Source: a virus
Length of the DNA: 22,655 bases
IMG/VR virus record: IMGVR_UViG_3300027671_000006
Span: 1 to 22,655 of that record
Reading direction: 5' to 3' (one strand)
Position numbers and translations under genes: made by a program. Shown here in pieces: positions 3,471 to 19,415 of the stretch (within the stretch, counting starts at the first letter, position 1; each line of letters starts with the position of its first letter). The notes beneath the pieces were generated by a model. That model did no database searches and was not told where the DNA came from. It worked only from the letters and a program-made list of their open reading frames with translations.

Positions 3471-3778
3471 ACGGCATTCATACCCAACGGCAACCCGCGG
3501 TCGCCGGATTGTTCCGGCGGATTCGTCAGAATGAAAATCCACCGTTTGACGCCGGGTTCATCAACGAGGTATGCAAGCCGATAGCCGGACAGCCAGGCGC
3601 CGCGTGTCGTAGTCCTGCGGCTATAATGCTGCAAGCCGTGCAGTATTACATCACGCGGAAACCAATCCTGACCAAGAGATTCAACCTGCACTTCGATTTT
3701 ATCACCGGCAGGCAGCATTAATACCGCGTTGTCGAACGTGATTTTCAGTTGCTCGGGAATCTTTTCGTTGGCGCTCAC
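3467..3778 (-). CDS. Hypothetical protein with GTG start (103 aa)
   Basis: The start is GTG at 3778-3776, overlapping the previous stop as GTGA, and gives MSANEKIPEQLKITFDNAV. The sequence is beta-rich (GDKIEVQVESLGQDWFPRD, later GYRLAYLVDEPGVKRWIF). No domain is recognised. The exact four-base linkage at both ends supports this being a translated gene. Confidence 0.65.
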   Translation of the reverse strand: MSANEKIPEQLKITFDNAVLMLPAGDKIEVQVESLGQDWFPRDVILHGLQHYSRRTTTRGAWLSGYRLAYLVDEPGVKRWIFILTNPPEQSGDRGLPLGMNAV

Positions 3779-4143
3779 GATTGTTTCGGAACCTGTGCTT
3801 GCTGCTGCGCGACTTGTTGCTTCACGCGATCAACATGCGAACTGATTGACGCAAACAGCATTACCAACGGCTCGTATTCATTTCTCGTTGTGTGCCAGCA
3901 ACCCAGCAGGTCGGAAGCATAAGCAACGAAACTATTGAACAAGAACTGCCCGAGTCCGGCGATTTCCGCTTGGCTGTTGGGAGTCACAATTTTGGTATTA
4001 CTGAGTTCTTGGAACCTCGCTAACGCTTTTCCGATACCGATTGCGACATCCGGCGTCAAGCGTTGGTTGAACTGCAAGTCTGCGGCTGCGACGGTTCCCC
4101 TTACGTCGGTATTTCCAGGGAATTGTGTAATATTGTCTTTCAT
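3775..4143 (-). CDS. Hypothetical helical protein (122 aa)
   Basis: The start is MKDNITQFPGNTDVRG, chosen because this ATG overlaps the preceding TGA as ATGA; an in-frame ATG twelve codons upstream lies inside the neighbour. The protein is largely helical and ends in a Gln-rich tail (VKQQVAQQQAQVPKQS). No family is recognised. Its stop overlaps the next GTG. Confidence 0.65.
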   Translation of the reverse strand: MKDNITQFPGNTDVRGTVAAADLQFNQRLTPDVAIGIGKALARFQELSNTKIVTPNSQAEIAGLGQFLFNSFVAYASDLLGCWHTTRNEYEPLVMLFASISSHVDRVKQQVAQQQAQVPKQS

Positions 4144-12110: not shown

Positions 12111-13385
12111 ATGGGGAATTTGTTCAATAAACGTAAGCACGCGCCGTTTAACCCAACTGTCGGCGCGGGCTCCGATTTGATCTGCTGGCTGCGCGCCGAT
12201 CCGGGGTATGTTAGTGTTGATCCCGGCGATGGTGTGACCTTCCTGCGGGATAAATCACAAAAAACTCAAGGGGTATTCCAAAGCACGCTTACTCAAAGCC
12301 CAGGGCTGTCTCGACTAGATATTATAGGAAACGCGCTTAGGTTTTCTGAGGATTTAACTCAAGGAACCTACGGGACTTCGACTGCTTGGGGGCAGAATGG
12401 GATTACTACGTCAATTGACGGGACACAGACCCCGCCATACGGCCAGGCAACGAAAATTATTCCTACGGCGGCATTAGCGGCGCACAATGCTTCTCAGTTT
12501 TATGCAACTGTAGGACCGACAATTTTTGAGGCGCTCTGTGCCCCTTCCGGCCTAAGCCCGGTAACTTTAAGTTTTCTTGGCGGTCCTGAAGGAACGAAAT
12601 CGGCATCATTTAATTTGACGATCGGAACAATTGTCAGCACTGATGCCGGGATTACATCAGCGATTACCGATAAAGGCGGGGGTTGGTATCTTTGTAGCAT
12701 TACTGGAACTCGCACGGCGAAAGGCGGATCAGTCAGAGTTACTCCTGCTTTAAATCTAGTAAATTTTACCGGCGACGGAGTAAACGGTATTTTTGTTGCG
12801 GCAACTGCAATTCGTAACACCGCATGGCCGAATACTTACGTCAAAACAAGTATTCTCGGTGAACGTGCATACCCGACAATTTTTTCTCAATTTACGTTTC
12901 AGACCGATGCCGCTGTTAATAGACTGCAAGCTTTTTTGAATAGTAATTTTGTTGCTGCTCAGCCGATTACTTTTTACTTTGTTGCGAAACAAGTAACTTG
13001 GAATTTGAACGGAACGTTGTTTGATTTGGGTGCCGGAGTTAATCCGGTTGCGATTATTCAAAAAGTCGCAACTCCGAGCATAACATTGAACGCAGGACTC
13101 GACGGACCTGCGAATACCAACTGGCCGTTGGATACGTATGCGATAATTACCGGGGTAGTTAATTCCGCGTCATCGTTGTTACAGGTCAACAACGGAACAG
13201 CGGCAACGGGTAACGCAGGAACCAATGCCGCAGGTGCTTGTAGTGTCGGAATCGACACCGGATTTGCAATAGGCTTTGGACAGGTTCAATTCGGAGAATT
13301 GCTTGTTTATTCCGGCATTCACGACGAGAATCGCCGGAGTAGTATTCAACGATACCTAGCAAGGTTTTGGGGGATAGTATATTGA
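12111..13385 (+). CDS. Tail-fibre-like protein with lectin (LamG-type) fold (424 aa)
   Basis: The N-terminal segment LICWLRADPGYVSVDPGDGV followed by FLRDKSQ, and the C-terminal LLVYSGIHDENRRSSIQRYL ending in ARFWGIVY, are the opening and closing pieces of a concanavalin A/LamG-like jelly roll seen in many phage fibres. Between them (residues about 60-240) lies an inserted beta-rich region, including GGGWYLCSITGTRTAKGG, that resembles a carbohydrate-binding module. Binding of host surface glycans is the likely role, inferred from the fold. The ATG lies seven bases after the previous stop with no ribosome binding site. Confidence 0.68.
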   Translation: MGNLFNKRKHAPFNPTVGAGSDLICWLRADPGYVSVDPGDGVTFLRDKSQKTQGVFQSTLTQSPGLSRLDIIGNALRFSEDLTQGTYGTSTAWGQNGITTSIDGTQTPPYGQATKIIPTAALAAHNASQFYATVGPTIFEALCAPSGLSPVTLSFLGGPEGTKSASFNLTIGTIVSTDAGITSAITDKGGGWYLCSITGTRTAKGGSVRVTPALNLVNFTGDGVNGIFVAATAIRNTAWPNTYVKTSILGERAYPTIFSQFTFQTDAAVNRLQAFLNSNFVAAQPITFYFVAKQVTWNLNGTLFDLGAGVNPVAIIQKVATPSITLNAGLDGPANTNWPLDTYAIITGVVNSASSLLQVNNGTAATGNAGTNAAGACSVGIDTGFAIGFGQVQFGELLVYSGIHDENRRSSIQRYLARFWGIVY

Positions 13386-15441: not shown

Positions 15442-15469
15442 TTGACAATCGCTGGCGGTGCTGTATAGT
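15442..15469 (+). promoter_or_regulatory. Recombinase promoter with canonical-like -10 and overlapping inverted repeat
   Basis: TTGACA (15442-15447), 16 bp, TATAGT (15464-15469), then six bases to the ATG at 15476. The -10 is bracketed by TGCTG (15459-15463) and CAGCA (15471-15475), a 5-bp inverted repeat that could be an operator. The start-codon distance matches the other promoters but the -10 does not. Confidence 0.75.
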
Positions 15470-15475
15470 GCAGCA

Positions 15476-16171
15476 ATGAAAGTTTTCTCATACACGCGCG
15501 TCAGCGGGCGAGGCCAGGTTGAAGGCGACGGTAAGCAGCGTCAGCTTGATTCAATTTCTCGGATGTGTCGTGAACATAATCTTGAGCATTGCGGGGATTG
15601 GTTTGAGGCTGGTATTTCTGGAACGGTTGAGGGGATTGACCGACCCCGATTTTCCGAGATGCTAGACGACATCGAGTTTAGAAAAAAGCACAAGCCAGAT
15701 TCCATTGATGCAATTGTTGTTGAGCGTATGGATCGGCTCGCGCGCGATCTCATGGTTTCCGAGGTGCTGCTGAAGGAATGCAGAACTCGTGGAATCAAAG
15801 TGTTCGCCGCGGACTCCGGCGTGCTTGAGGACGTTGCCTCCGACAGTATCGACCCGACGCGCAAACTCGTTCGCCAGATTCTTGCCGCGCTGGCCGAGTG
15901 GGAGAAATCGGCGCTTGTGAAAAAACTTGCTGTCGCCCGCGCGCGGGTGAAAGCGAAAACCGGACGCTGCGAGGGCAGGTTGCCGTATGGGTGCCGAGTT
16001 GGCGAGCAAGCAGTTGTTGAGATAATCAAAAGTCAGCGTGCCGGGGGCCGATCCTATCAGCATATTGCAGATTTTTTGAATAGTGCTGCTCTGAAAACTC
16101 CGGCGGGAAAACAATTCGGAAAAAAGTTGGTGTTCAGTATTTACAACCGTGCAACCAACGGAAAGGTCTGA
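15476..16171 (+). CDS. Serine recombinase of the resolvase/invertase family (231 aa)
   Basis: The start at 15476 (MKVFSYTRVSGRGQ) puts the catalytic Ser10 in the classical Y-x-R-V-S motif with Arg8 beside it. Further family residues are in VVERMDRLARD (Arg87, Arg90), with the long helix around residues 125-160 and the recombinase-domain entry GRLPYG at 168-172. The C-terminal part (GGRSYQHIADFLNSAALKTP) resembles the helix-turn-helix region. At 231 residues it is closer to resolvases than to large serine integrases (usually over 450 residues). Possible jobs are lysogenic integration, dimer resolution or inversion of a receptor-binding segment; no attachment sites were identified. Confidence 0.88.
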   Translation: MKVFSYTRVSGRGQVEGDGKQRQLDSISRMCREHNLEHCGDWFEAGISGTVEGIDRPRFSEMLDDIEFRKKHKPDSIDAIVVERMDRLARDLMVSEVLLKECRTRGIKVFAADSGVLEDVASDSIDPTRKLVRQILAALAEWEKSALVKKLAVARARVKAKTGRCEGRLPYGCRVGEQAVVEIIKSQRAGGRSYQHIADFLNSAALKTPAGKQFGKKLVFSIYNRATNGKV

Positions 16172-16486: not shown

Positions 16487-16515
16487 TTGCATTATATCCG
16501 CTAAACCGGCACTAT
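16487..16515 (+). promoter_or_regulatory. Leaderless-type promoter before the membrane protein/tRNA block (family member 7)
   Basis: TTGCAT (16487-16492), 17 bp ending in AAACCGG, CACTAT (16510-16515), then five bases to the ATG at 16521. No other clear promoter is visible before the tRNA or the TerL block, so this may drive 16521 onward. Confidence 0.87.
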
Positions 16516-16520
16516 TGGGT

Positions 16521-16724
16521 ATGATTAACACTATTCTTGCAGTCTCCGGCGTTCATACGCTGGCTCTCGTTGTTGCCGCTGTGGCGGCTTCCGCTGTCGG
16601 CACGTTGCTGTTTTTGCGTGCGAATCCTCATAAGGCTTCTGAGGCCAATGAGTATGTCGGCAAAGCCGATAAGGCAGTTGATTCCGCCGTTAAATCGGTG
16701 GTTGAGACCGCTAAGAAGCTCTGA
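16521..16724 (+). CDS. Small single-span membrane protein (67 aa)
   Basis: The ATG at 16521 is preferred to an in-frame TTG two codons upstream because that TTG overlaps the -10 box. Residues about 10-33 are a hydrophobic Ala/Val/Leu segment (VHTLALVVAAVAASAVGTLL) followed by a basic, helical tail (KAVDSAVKSVVETAKKL). One transmembrane span with a charged C-terminal helix would fit a small inner-membrane protein; a holin is possible but not shown. It begins the transcript that also contains the tRNA. Confidence 0.65.
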   Translation: MINTILAVSGVHTLALVVAAVAASAVGTLLFLRANPHKASEANEYVGKADKAVDSAVKSVVETAKKL

Positions 16725-16767: not shown

Positions 16768-16844
16768 TGCAGCGTGGAGTAGCCTGGTAACTCGTCAGGC
16801 CCATAACCTGAAGTCCGTTGGTTCAAATCCAACCGCTGCACCCA
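16768..16844 (+). tRNA. Initiator-type tRNA-Met (CAT), 77 nt with encoded CCA
   Basis: Acceptor arm TGCAGCG/CGCTGCA, D-arm GAGT-AGCCTGGTA-ACTC, anticodon stem TCAGG/CCTGA with loop CCCATAA (anticodon CAT), T-arm GTTGG-TTCAAAT-CCAAC, discriminator C73 and encoded CCA. The layout and length match Escherichia coli tRNA-fMet closely. Initiator features are A11:U24 in the D-stem (elongators have pyrimidine:purine) and a weak U1:A72 end pair where bacteria have a C1:A72 mismatch. Deviations are A29:U41 instead of the third G:C pair of the anticodon stem, C33 replacing the near-universal U33, and C73 instead of A73. Confidence 0.93.
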
Positions 16845-16846
16845 AT

Positions 16847-16950
16847 TTGAGATGTTGATAAGGCACTGCCGACAGGCGGGGAGAAATCCGGGAACCTCGT
16901 CCCGAAAGGATTTGGGCTTGCACCGTCAGTAATTCCCGTTCGCATCTCAA
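16847..16950 (+). ncRNA. Structured RNA element in the leader of the 16960 gene
   Basis: An 8-bp closing helix pairs 16847-16854 (TTGAGATG) with 16943-16950 (CATCTCAA). Inside, AAATCC (16884-16889) pairs with GGATTT (16908-16913), enclosing GGGA (16890-16893)/TCCC (16900-16903). Smaller pairings (GCC/GGC near 16868-16877, ACTG 16865-16868 with CAGT 16927-16930) could form further arms. The element starts three bases after the tRNA CCA and ends ten bases before the next ATG. A riboswitch, processing signal or packaging-related RNA are all possible; no known class is recognised. Confidence 0.5.
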
Positions 16951-16959
16951 TATTTTCGC

Positions 16960-17469
16960 ATGAATGTGTATCTCTATTTCTATCCGCAGCCGGACGTTGA
17001 TAGCACCCGCGCGGATTTCATTCGGCTTTGGGCGTCAAGCTGGTCTCGGCATGGCTGGACGCCGAGAATTCTGACGATCCGTGATGCGCGCAAAAGTTCG
17101 TATTACCGGAAGGCGTTACAACTCGACCTTTCCGGGGGCTTCGGTTTTCCGGTGGAGTATCTTGCGCTGCACGCAGTCGGCGGCGGGATGTTGACGACCC
17201 CGGACACGATAAATTTCGGATTACCGGCAAAACGGAGGGTAATGCCGGCTGAGTTTATCTCTGGTGGTGTTGTTTGGTCAACGAGCGCGGGAATTGAATC
17301 CGAGATGCGTCGGATTGCGCGGTATAAAATGCCAGGCAGCGGATTTATGAAGCGGGCGCCGGAAGCTATTTGCGGACATTATCCCGCGGAAGGATGGCAG
17401 AATTATCCATTGGTTCGGTTTGTTGGCGGCACCCCGGAAGATATTCGGACCTGTGGGCGCGATGTTTAA
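16960..17469 (+). CDS. Glycosyltransferase-like phage protein (169 aa)
   Basis: The N-terminus MNVYLYFYPQPDVDSTRADF, then SWSRHGWTPRILTIRDAR, and the segment EYLALHAVGGGMLTTPDTIN resemble phage proteins with a GT-A-like fold. In those, a chain such as Y-L-A-x-x-x-x-GGG is normally followed by a D-x-D sugar-nucleotide/metal motif. Here the acidic pair is degenerate (T-T-P-D, residues 79-82), so catalytic activity is doubtful. The ATG has no Shine-Dalgarno sequence and follows the structured RNA element. It sits five bases upstream of the terminase gene, a placement I recall for related proteins. Confidence 0.5.
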   Translation: MNVYLYFYPQPDVDSTRADFIRLWASSWSRHGWTPRILTIRDARKSSYYRKALQLDLSGGFGFPVEYLALHAVGGGMLTTPDTINFGLPAKRRVMPAEFISGGVVWSTSAGIESEMRRIARYKMPGSGFMKRAPEAICGHYPAEGWQNYPLVRFVGGTPEDIRTCGRDV

Positions 17470-17474
17470 ACGTT

Positions 17475-19415
17475 ATGTTGCCCGTAGGACGGAACAAAGA
17501 TTTAGCGAAATACATCGCAGCTTTCATTCACGCGCAACAACTCGGTGAAGCGGCAAAGTTAATCTCCGATTTCTGCGGCATTGCTAAAACATTCGATAGT
17601 AATAACCCGAAGGAATGTCACCCGATTCTTCTGACGTATCTGCACAGCCTGCTGAACAGTAATGGCATGGAGGAAGCCGCGCAGATTCTCTGGACTCCGA
17701 ATCAATTTTCTTGCGCGCCGAAATACACCAAAGACCTTTGGAATCTATTTGATTCAACCAATCGGGGCCTTGTAATGGGCGCCGCGTCGTGCAGTAAATC
17801 GTATGCGCTGGGTGTTCGATTATTTCTCGAATGGATTCGTGATCCTGTATGGACGAGCATTCAGCTTGTCGGCCCGAGCGAGGATCACCTTGAAACAAAT
17901 CTTTTTTCTCATATCGTCGGCTTGCATACGAAATCAACGCTGCCGATGCCGGGGCAAATTGGAGAACTTTTCATCGGTATGGACCGGCGGCAGCAGCTTG
18001 GTTCGATCAAGGGAGTAATAATTCCGGTTGGTAAATCGAAAAAGGCCGGCAGGTTGCAGGGCGGAAAACGGCTACCGCGGGATCGGGCGCATCCGATCTT
18101 TGGATTGTTATCTCGCAAGTTTGCGTTTATCGACGAAATTGAAAACGTGCCCGCGGGTCTTTGGGCGGATATTGACAACATGCTTTCGACCATCGACGAG
18201 CAGGGTCACGAGGGCATGAAAATTTTCGGTGCATATAATCCTTCCGACAGAAACTCTGAAGTCGCCAAGCGCGCAGAGCCGCCTTTCGGTTGGGAGTCTT
18301 TCGACGTTGATGCTCATTTTGACTGGGTATCCAAGCGCGGTTGGAACGTGTTGCGACTCGATGGAGAAAAATCTGAAAACGTTGTCGCCGGTAAAACGAT
18401 TATTCCGGGATTACAAACGCGCGCGGGGCTTGCGGCGTTGGCATTGAATGCCGGCGGAACGCAATCCGCTGGATATTTTACAATGGGCCGCGGCGCATAT
18501 CCGCCAACCGGGATCGAGCTAACGTTGATCCCGCCAGGAATGTTGTATAAAATGCGGGGCGAGTTTATCTGGTATGACGCGCCGACGCCGTGCGCGTCCT
18601 GCGACGTTGCGTTGACTGGCGGCGCTCGCGCTGTGTATTCGCTTGGTAAATACGGCAAGGCAACGGGAATGAAAATTCCTCCGACAATTGAGTTTCCGAA
18701 CGGGCAGGTAATAATGTTCAAGGATAAAAACGGCCATGTTGTCCCGCGCTTCGGGGTTCAGTTGGACCGCCAGTTTACGTTGCCGCAAGGCGACACGGTC
18801 GCTGTTAAGGAGGGCTTGATGCAGGTTAATCGTCGTGCTGGTGTCAAACCGCAGGATTTTGCTTGCGACAGAACTGGCAACGGTGCTGGGGTCGCTGATT
18901 TGCTTCGGCACGAATGGTCGAGTCAGATTCACGATGTAAACTATTCTGAGGGGCCGACCAAAACGAGAATTGTTGCTGAGGATAAAAAACCGTGCGACGA
19001 GATGTTTGATCGGATGTGTTCCGAGCTTTGGTTTGGTTTTCGGACCTTTGGTGAATTTCATATTTTTTTGATTAACCCGCAAGTTGACATGAGTAAACTT
19101 ACGGAACAAATCACAGGTCGAAAGTCTAAGCAGGTCGGTGAGAAATCGAAAATCGAATCGAAGAAAGACTATATCACTCGTGGCAATGAATCTCCCGACG
19201 AGGCCGATAGCGCAACGTTGCTTGTTCTTGCGGCGCGTCTCGGTAGCGGAGTTATTCCTTCGATCAACGGCACCGAGCTTCCGACGCTCGGAAATTTCGA
19301 CGGGTGGGAGGACGAGATGCACTATCCGCACGGGGTTCGCCTTGATCCAAGTTCTCGAACAGATTATCTTGATGCTTCAGAAAGCGGGATGTATGGAGGC
19401 GAACCGATTTTATGA
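17475..19415 (+). CDS. terL: Terminase large subunit (646 aa)
   Basis: ATPase motor and nuclease that cuts and packages phage DNA into the prohead. A Walker A-like loop GAASCSKS lies at residues 102-109 and Walker B FAFIDE at 216-221, followed by the coupling segment GAYNPSD near 252. In the C-terminal nuclease half, acidic residues appear in CASCDVALTGG (Asp377), ACDRTGNGAGVAD (Asp465) and later SPDEADSAT, the expected RNase H-like triad. The start is the ATG at 17475, five bases after the preceding stop, giving MLPVGRNKDLAKYIAA; the open frame reaches further upstream inside the neighbour. The stop overlaps the next ATG. The packaging type cannot be told from this alone. Confidence 0.93.
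   Translation: MLPVGRNKDLAKYIAAFIHAQQLGEAAKLISDFCGIAKTFDSNNPKECHPILLTYLHSLLNSNGMEEAAQILWTPNQFSCAPKYTKDLWNLFDSTNRGLVMGAASCSKSYALGVRLFLEWIRDPVWTSIQLVGPSEDHLETNLFSHIVGLHTKSTLPMPGQIGELFIGMDRRQQLGSIKGVIIPVGKSKKAGRLQGGKRLPRDRAHPIFGLLSRKFAFIDEIENVPAGLWADIDNMLSTIDEQGHEGMKIFGAYNPSDRNSEVAKRAEPPFGWESFDVDAHFDWVSKRGWNVLRLDGEKSENVVAGKTIIPGLQTRAGLAALALNAGGTQSAGYFTMGRGAYPPTGIELTLIPPGMLYKMRGEFIWYDAPTPCASCDVALTGGARAVYSLGKYGKATGMKIPPTIEFPNGQVIMFKDKNGHVVPRFGVQLDRQFTLPQGDTVAVKEGLMQVNRRAGVKPQDFACDRTGNGAGVADLLRHEWSSQIHDVNYSEGPTKTRIVAEDKKPCDEMFDRMCSELWFGFRTFGEFHIFLINPQVDMSKLTEQITGRKSKQVGEKSKIESKKDYITRGNESPDEADSATLLVLAARLGSGVIPSINGTELPTLGNFDGWEDEMHYPHGVRLDPSSRTDYLDASESGMYGGEPIL

What the first reader, a model, noticed from the sequence alone, without database searches (positions are those of the whole stretch)
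16768..16844. Phage-encoded initiator-type tRNA-Met with C33, U1:A72 and C73
The 77-nt tRNA aligns base for base with bacterial tRNA-fMet and has A11:U24, an initiator hallmark. It departs from the bacterial norm at key positions: U1:A72 instead of the C1:A72 mismatch, A29:U41 in place of one of three G:C pairs, C73 instead of A73, and C33 instead of the near-universal U33 (C33 is known in some eukaryotic initiators). An initiator tRNA differing in its discriminator and anticodon loop could be specialised, or decay-prone.
Basis: partly seen in the sequence, partly recalled or inferred. Interest (0 to 1): 0.82.

Follow-up and report, generated by a model that had tools for sequence, protein, structure and literature searches.

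The report
Phage initiator tRNA with rare variants
This virus of bacteria carries its own working-looking copy of the tRNA that starts every protein; its odd bases turn out to be recurring variants seen in other phages and (partly) in bacteria, so it is not decaying, and in its relatives the gene sits right against the start of the next gene, which may be the more interesting part.

Summary
It is 79% identical to E. coli tRNA-fMet without gaps, against 57-59% for elongator Met and Ile2. It is not decaying: all 21 stem pairs are Watson-Crick, and related phages keep the gene at the same locus with compensatory changes. The 'specialised C33/C73' reading is mostly not supported. U1:A72 and A29:U41 are known or common initiator states. 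C33 occurs in 110 viral contigs of one search pattern and is the only initiator state matched in whole groups of bacteria (Weissella/Leuconostoc relatives and others). C73 is a rarer variant, seen only in phages here, and is present with U1:A72 in cultured Caulobacter phage CcrSC. Within the window's own phage clade C33 and C73 do not travel together. Most likely it is a functional phage initiator tRNA; escape from host tRNA-attacking toxins is untested. Unexpected in this clade: no Shine-Dalgarno sites, a CACTRTT promoter-like motif, and a tRNA gene ending 5-23 nt before a start codon in six of six relatives (115 nt in the window), suggesting that tRNA processing makes near-leaderless mRNA.

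The parts
16768..16844 (+). initiator-type tRNA-Met(CAU), 77 nt with encoded CCA; U1:A72, A11:U24, A29:U41, C33, C73
16510..16523 (+). CACTATT motif (16510-16516) followed 4 nt later by ATG (16521); nearest promoter-like motif upstream of the tRNA
16515..16724 (+). small ORF between the motif and the tRNA; true start probably ATG 16521
16847..16950 (+). segment closed by an 8-bp inverted repeat (TTGAGATG/CATCTCAA) between the tRNA and the next ORF; no Rfam match; fold z -1.63 (weak); no counterpart seen between tRNA and ORF in the related phages
16960..17469 (+). ORF without Shine-Dalgarno; homologue directly follows the tRNA in related phages
17370..19415 (+). probable large terminase (conserved in the phage clade); identity rests on a weak structural match and an inferred Walker A/B pattern
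15458..16171 (+). serine recombinase/resolvase, left border of the conserved locus

Best explanation
A functional, selectively maintained phage-encoded initiator tRNA (tRNA-fMet type). It is transcribed with the gene block that precedes the probable terminase, charged with Met by the host MetRS, formylated, and used at the ribosomal P site to boost or replace host initiator during infection of an unidentified host. C33 and C73 are two independent tolerated variants, not a co-adapted set. Shown: sequence, initiator type, conservation of the gene at the locus, compensatory change, distribution of the variants. Inferred: expression, charging, formylation, use in initiation, and the benefit to the phage.
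For: Initiator features kept: CAU, A11:U24, G2:C71, C3:G70, weak 1:72, G30:C40, G31:C39, encoded CCA (determinants in PMC7949028 and PMC9976931). 79% identity to E. coli initiator against 57-59% to elongator Met and Ile2. An initiator-type tRNA lies at the same site between resolvase and probable terminase in L013, L352, L492 (same sequence in L489, L493, L497), L494 and L496, plus a partial 3' end in L357. Compensatory changes in 8 of 21 pairs among four clade members, 0/500 shuffles as high. Among 96 distinct viral initiators, positions 2:71 and 3:70 stay G:C and C:G in 86 and 93. C33: 110 viral contigs; at least 119 cellular contigs, with titles from Weissella, Leuconostoc, Erysipelotrichaceae, Saccharibacteria, Elusimicrobia and Phycisphaerales; in the Lactobacillaceae sample the 18 listed genomes with C33 show no U33 copy for the pattern, and several have two C33 copies; two of these loci lie in large chromosomal-type tRNA clusters (L243, L264). 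C73 with U1:A72, U33 and CCA in Caulobacter phage CcrSC, annotated tRNA-fMet.
Against: A73 and U33 are listed Met identity elements for E. coli (PMC9976931), so charging by an E. coli-like MetRS may be reduced. C73 was 0 of 74 in my cellular C33 set, so it is not host-normal in that set. No expression, charging or host data. The window is a 22.7-kb fragment.
Confidence: 0.72

Rival explanations
1. Counter-defence: the phage supplies an initiator whose altered anticodon loop (C33) and acceptor end (U1:A72, C73, non-G:C lower stem) is not cut or modified by host toxins that hit initiator tRNA (VapC, AtaT-like acetyltransferases, CdiA-type nucleases).
For: Published proposal that phage tRNAs carry anticodon-loop changes that avoid anticodon nucleases (PMC10264068). 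VapC cleaves tRNA-fMet at A38/C39 (PMC4105405). AtaT depends on the lower acceptor G-C pairs and on positions 1/72 (PMC7595197). C73 was seen only in viral sequences here.
Against: C33 is also the normal state in some bacteria, so it need not be an escape mutation; A38 and C39, the known VapC cut site, are unchanged; the same paper reports that phages generally avoid encoding tRNA-fMet where it is the VapC target; host and its toxins unknown; within the clade most members have U33 and A73.
Confidence: 0.2
2. Processing signal: in this Shine-Dalgarno-less phage clade the tRNA works at least partly as punctuation, so that RNase P and 3' processing release a near-leaderless mRNA for the gene block that contains the probable terminase. 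This can be true together with the best explanation.
For: In six of six distinct relatives an ATG-started ORF of at least 60 aa begins 5-23 nt after CCA with no SD, against 36 of 227 other viral initiator genes. 2 of 21 gene starts checked in the window have an SD-like site. A GCACTNTYT promoter-like motif lies 8-10 nt before the tRNA in five relatives.
Against: In the window the next ORF is 115 nt away; the six relatives share ancestry, so they are not independent; CAU and initiator features are conserved, which pure punctuation would not need; no RNA data. L488 has the adjacency at a different locus.
Confidence: 0.3
3. Pseudo-tRNA or decaying hitch-hiker.
For: C73, C33 and U1:A72 all depart from the E. 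coli consensus.
Against: Perfect stems, encoded CCA, compensatory changes, conserved locus.
Confidence: 0.04
4. Elongator Met or lysidine-modified Ile2 tRNA.
For: Same CAU anticodon.
Against: 57-59% identity with gaps; U1-A72 in 3 of 5179 elongators only (PMC5143459); A11:U24 and the two conserved G:C pairs.
Confidence: 0.03

Closest known systems
Bacterial initiator tRNA-fMet (E. coli metZ)
   Same: 77 nt, ungapped alignment, CAU, A11:U24, G2:C71, C3:G70, G30:C40, G31:C39, CCA
   Different: U1:A72 for C1:A72, A4:U69, A29:U41, C33, C73
Phage-encoded tRNA-fMet of Caulobacter phage CcrSC
   Same: U1:A72, C73, encoded CCA, initiator body
   Different: U33; unrelated large phage
C33 chromosomal initiators of Weissella/Leuconostoc relatives, Saccharibacteria, Elusimicrobia, Phycisphaerales
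   Same: CCCATAA anticodon loop, initiator body
   Different: A73 in all 74 distinct sequences; mostly C1:A72
Initiator tRNA of related phage L013
   Same: same locus, identical anticodon arm with C33
   Different: C1:A72, A73, 76 nt, next ATG 23 nt away

Membership tests
Bacterial-type initiator tRNA (tRNA-fMet) | CAU anticodon in a normal cloverleaf | tested here: met
Bacterial-type initiator tRNA (tRNA-fMet) | purine 11 : pyrimidine 24 (A11:U24) | tested here: met
Bacterial-type initiator tRNA (tRNA-fMet) | no strong 1:72 pair (mismatch, or U1:A72 in 1.4%) | tested here: met
   U1:A72; PMC5143459; seen in 7 of 90 distinct viral C33 and 21 of 109 viral U33 initiators
Bacterial-type initiator tRNA (tRNA-fMet) | three G:C pairs 29-31:39-41 (E. 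coli norm) | tested here: not met
   two of three; A29:U41, which is the commonest state in the viral and cellular C33 sets, so treated as typical rather than strictly defining
Bacterial-type initiator tRNA (tRNA-fMet) | G2:C71 and C3:G70 (formylation) | tested here: met
Bacterial-type initiator tRNA (tRNA-fMet) | A73 and U33 (near-universal, MetRS elements in E. coli) | tested here: not met
   C73, C33; both occur in other initiator-type tRNAs, so typical rather than strictly defining; filed as a variant for this reason
Bacterial-type initiator tRNA (tRNA-fMet) | charged with Met, formylated, used at the P site | not testable with these tools
   needs biochemistry
Elongator tRNA-Met or tRNA-Ile2(CAU) | sequence closer to metT or ileX than to metZ; strong 1:72 pair | tested here: not met
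Anticodon-nuclease-resistant phage tRNA | altered loop at a known cut site, with resistance shown | tested here: inconclusive
   position 33 changed, VapC site 38/39 unchanged; resistance not testable; host unknown

The most novel reading that the evidence does not exclude
A clade of Shine-Dalgarno-less phages couples its own initiator tRNA to its translation: the initiator gene has its own phage-type promoter and ends a few bases before a start codon, so tRNA maturation both supplies initiator and creates a near-leaderless mRNA, as tRNA punctuation does in mitochondria; C33 and C73 would tune this initiator for leaderless starts.
Probability: 0.12. Interest if true: 0.8.

Novelty: new variant of a known kind. 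Interest (0 to 1): 0.42.

Why it matters
It shows that two 'universal' positions of bacterial-type initiator tRNA are evolvable in nature: U33 (C33 is the only state found in groups of bacteria) and A73 (C73 in several phages). These are ready-made substrates for testing what MetRS, formyltransferase and the P site really require. I found no open-access paper describing bacterial C33 initiators; the coverage of my library is partial. The tRNA-to-ATG adjacency in an SD-less phage clade makes tRNA punctuation in a bacterial virus directly testable.

Tried and rejected
Host identification: no probable-portal match in INPHARED or in 288 and 294 genomes of the phyla of a Lentisphaeria MAG and a Phycisphaerales MAG; one remote 22% match in a genome of the phylum of a Ferruginibacter MAG; no host assigned. 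No terminase match in INPHARED. A GGYA-type initiator pattern in 61 genomes of that third phylum found nothing (pattern probably too strict). T7-like RNA polymerase (PF00940): no hit in six records, and the controls were also silent, so uninformative. AlphaFold models of probable terminase and probable portal are poor (pLDDT 43-44); the portal label rests on position only. The segment 16847-16950 has no Rfam match above chance and only weak folding. C73 against C33 association: not significant (p 0.18); C73 against U1: p 0.04, unadjusted, related sequences. A viral C73 pattern scan returned only length-shifted matches. The true U33 to C33 ratio in viruses is only bounded: at least 120 U33 against 10 C33 for one stem type.

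Full report
Observation. ARAGORN finds one tRNA in the window, tRNA-Met(cat) at 16768-16844 +, and Rfam's tRNA model scores it 58.2 bits. Numbering each base confirms U1:A72, A11:U24, A29:U41, C33 and C73, with an encoded CCA. It aligns without gaps to E. coli initiator metZ at 79.2%, but only with gaps at 56.8% to elongator metT and 58.8% to Ile2 ileX. It is an initiator-type tRNA by sequence.

Not decaying. All 21 stem pairs are Watson-Crick. The probable terminase (17370-19415) has relatives at 52-61% identity in 13 viral contigs, and further members of the clade came in with another search. Between resolvase and probable terminase these phages keep the same gene order. An initiator-type tRNA sits in that gap in the window and in L013, L352, L492 (same sequence in L489, L493 and L497), L494 and L496; L357 begins with the 3' end of one. 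A further relative (L359 contig; tRNA in L363/L488) carries one elsewhere in its genome. Not all relatives have it: L351, L356, L358, L360 and L361 show none in the fetched sequence. On the four-sequence alignment 8 of 21 pairs changed on both sides and 96.4% of cells pair, 0 of 500 shuffles as high.

How odd are the departures? U1-A72 is the only Watson-Crick 1:72 pair among 4438 predicted bacterial initiators (1.4%) and nearly absent from elongators (PMC5143459). In my viral sets it is the second to fourth commonest state. A29:U41 is the commonest 29:41 pair in viral C33, viral U33 and cellular C33 initiators. C33: the exact pattern GGTARCTCGNNNGGCCCATAACC hits 110 viral contigs and at least 119 cellular contigs. 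Of 20 such cellular genomes, 15 matched a longer pattern; 14 of these carry one copy, C33 only, and one (a Nocardioides MAG) has a U33 copy plus the C33 copy. In 151 Lactobacillaceae genomes the 18 listed genomes with C33 carry only C33, several with two copies, and no listed genome mixes C33 and U33 (the list is truncated and the pattern is strict). Two of these C33 genes lie in large tRNA clusters (L243 Leuconostoc, L264). C33 is therefore compatible with being a bacterium's normal initiator. It is still the minority in viruses: for one stem type at least 120 U33 contigs against 10 C33.

C73 is rarer: 7 of 90 distinct viral C33 initiators, 3 of 109 viral U33, 0 of 74 cellular C33. It is real and recurrent: Caulobacter phage CcrSC, a cultured phage, encodes an annotated tRNA-fMet with U1:A72, C73 and CCA but U33. 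Within the window's clade C33 occurs only in the window and L013, and C73 only in the window and the L363/L488 phage. So the two features are separate polymorphic states, and their combination in the window is not a clade-wide specialised type.

Function. The positions that help formylation in E. coli (weak 1:72, G2:C71, C3:G70, A11:U24; PMC7949028) are kept. A73 and U33, listed among Met identity elements (PMC9976931), are not, so charging efficiency is the main doubt. The best-supported account is a working initiator that supplements or replaces host initiator; expression, charging and use are inferred. The escape model (PMC10264068) is possible, but the mapped VapC site in tRNA-fMet, A38/C39 (PMC4105405), is unchanged here and C33 is normal in some bacteria.

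Surroundings. Gene starts in the window lack Shine-Dalgarno motifs: 2 of 21 starts checked have one, one of the 21 positions being a mis-set coordinate. The motif CACTRTT occurs 3-12 nt before an ATG 7 times in the window against 0.64 expected, and 11 times in the relatives against 1.94. A similar motif lies 8-10 nt before the tRNA in five relatives (individual p values from 0.0006 to 0.17). It resembles the core of T7/SP6 promoters (own knowledge), but no polymerase was identified. In six of six distinct relatives an SD-less ORF starts 5-23 nt after the CCA, against 36 of 227 other viral initiator genes. In the window this distance is 115 nt, with a segment closed by an 8-bp inverted repeat in between. 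This suggests, but does not show, that tRNA processing shapes the mRNA 5' end.

Limits. The window is a fragment of an unnamed virus, the host is unknown, and the clade has no match in 50,697 annotated phage records by probable terminase or probable portal. 'Terminase' rests on a weak Foldseek match (E 7.8e-4 to a phage D6E terminase, with a low-confidence model); 'portal' rests on position only.

Noticed in passing
L492 6815-6890, L490/L352 about 112-188, L488/L491 about 3732-3806, L494 about 1678, L496 about 2865, L353 about 5367: CCA-ended (ACCG in L353) tRNA-like RNAs in relatives of the window phage: conserved D arm TCGTCYAAAATCTAGGAC without G18G19, T loops without TTC, shortened and variable anticodon hairpins; they fold into a cloverleaf-like shape but mostly escape ARAGORN and Rfam. 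L495, a different phage with 13 tRNAs, has one too. Possibly a new class of elbow-less phage tRNA-like RNA.
   Followed up: partly
window 5898, 7415, 7727, 11133, 15170, 16510, 20257 (+): CACTRTT motif a few nt before ATG, 7 observed against 0.64 expected; promoter-like, would give near-leaderless mRNAs.
   Followed up: partly
L243, L247, L264, L235, L248, L281 and genomes: C33 as the only matched initiator state in groups of bacteria, contrary to the textbook U33.
   Followed up: partly
window 16847-16950: Segment closed by TTGAGATG/CATCTCAA between the tRNA and the next ORF, no Rfam match, weak fold.
   Followed up: partly
L306 7507-7583 (Nocardioides MAG): C33 initiator (A1:C72) on one contig while another contig of the same MAG has a U33 initiator; possibly phage-borne.
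   Followed up: no
L498 7718-15754 (-): 2679-aa ORF in a relative with phosphatase-like and acetyltransferase-like stretches.
   Followed up: no
window 12111-13385: ORF matches the NCBIfam phage head spike fiber domain; the window otherwise has few database matches.
   Followed up: no
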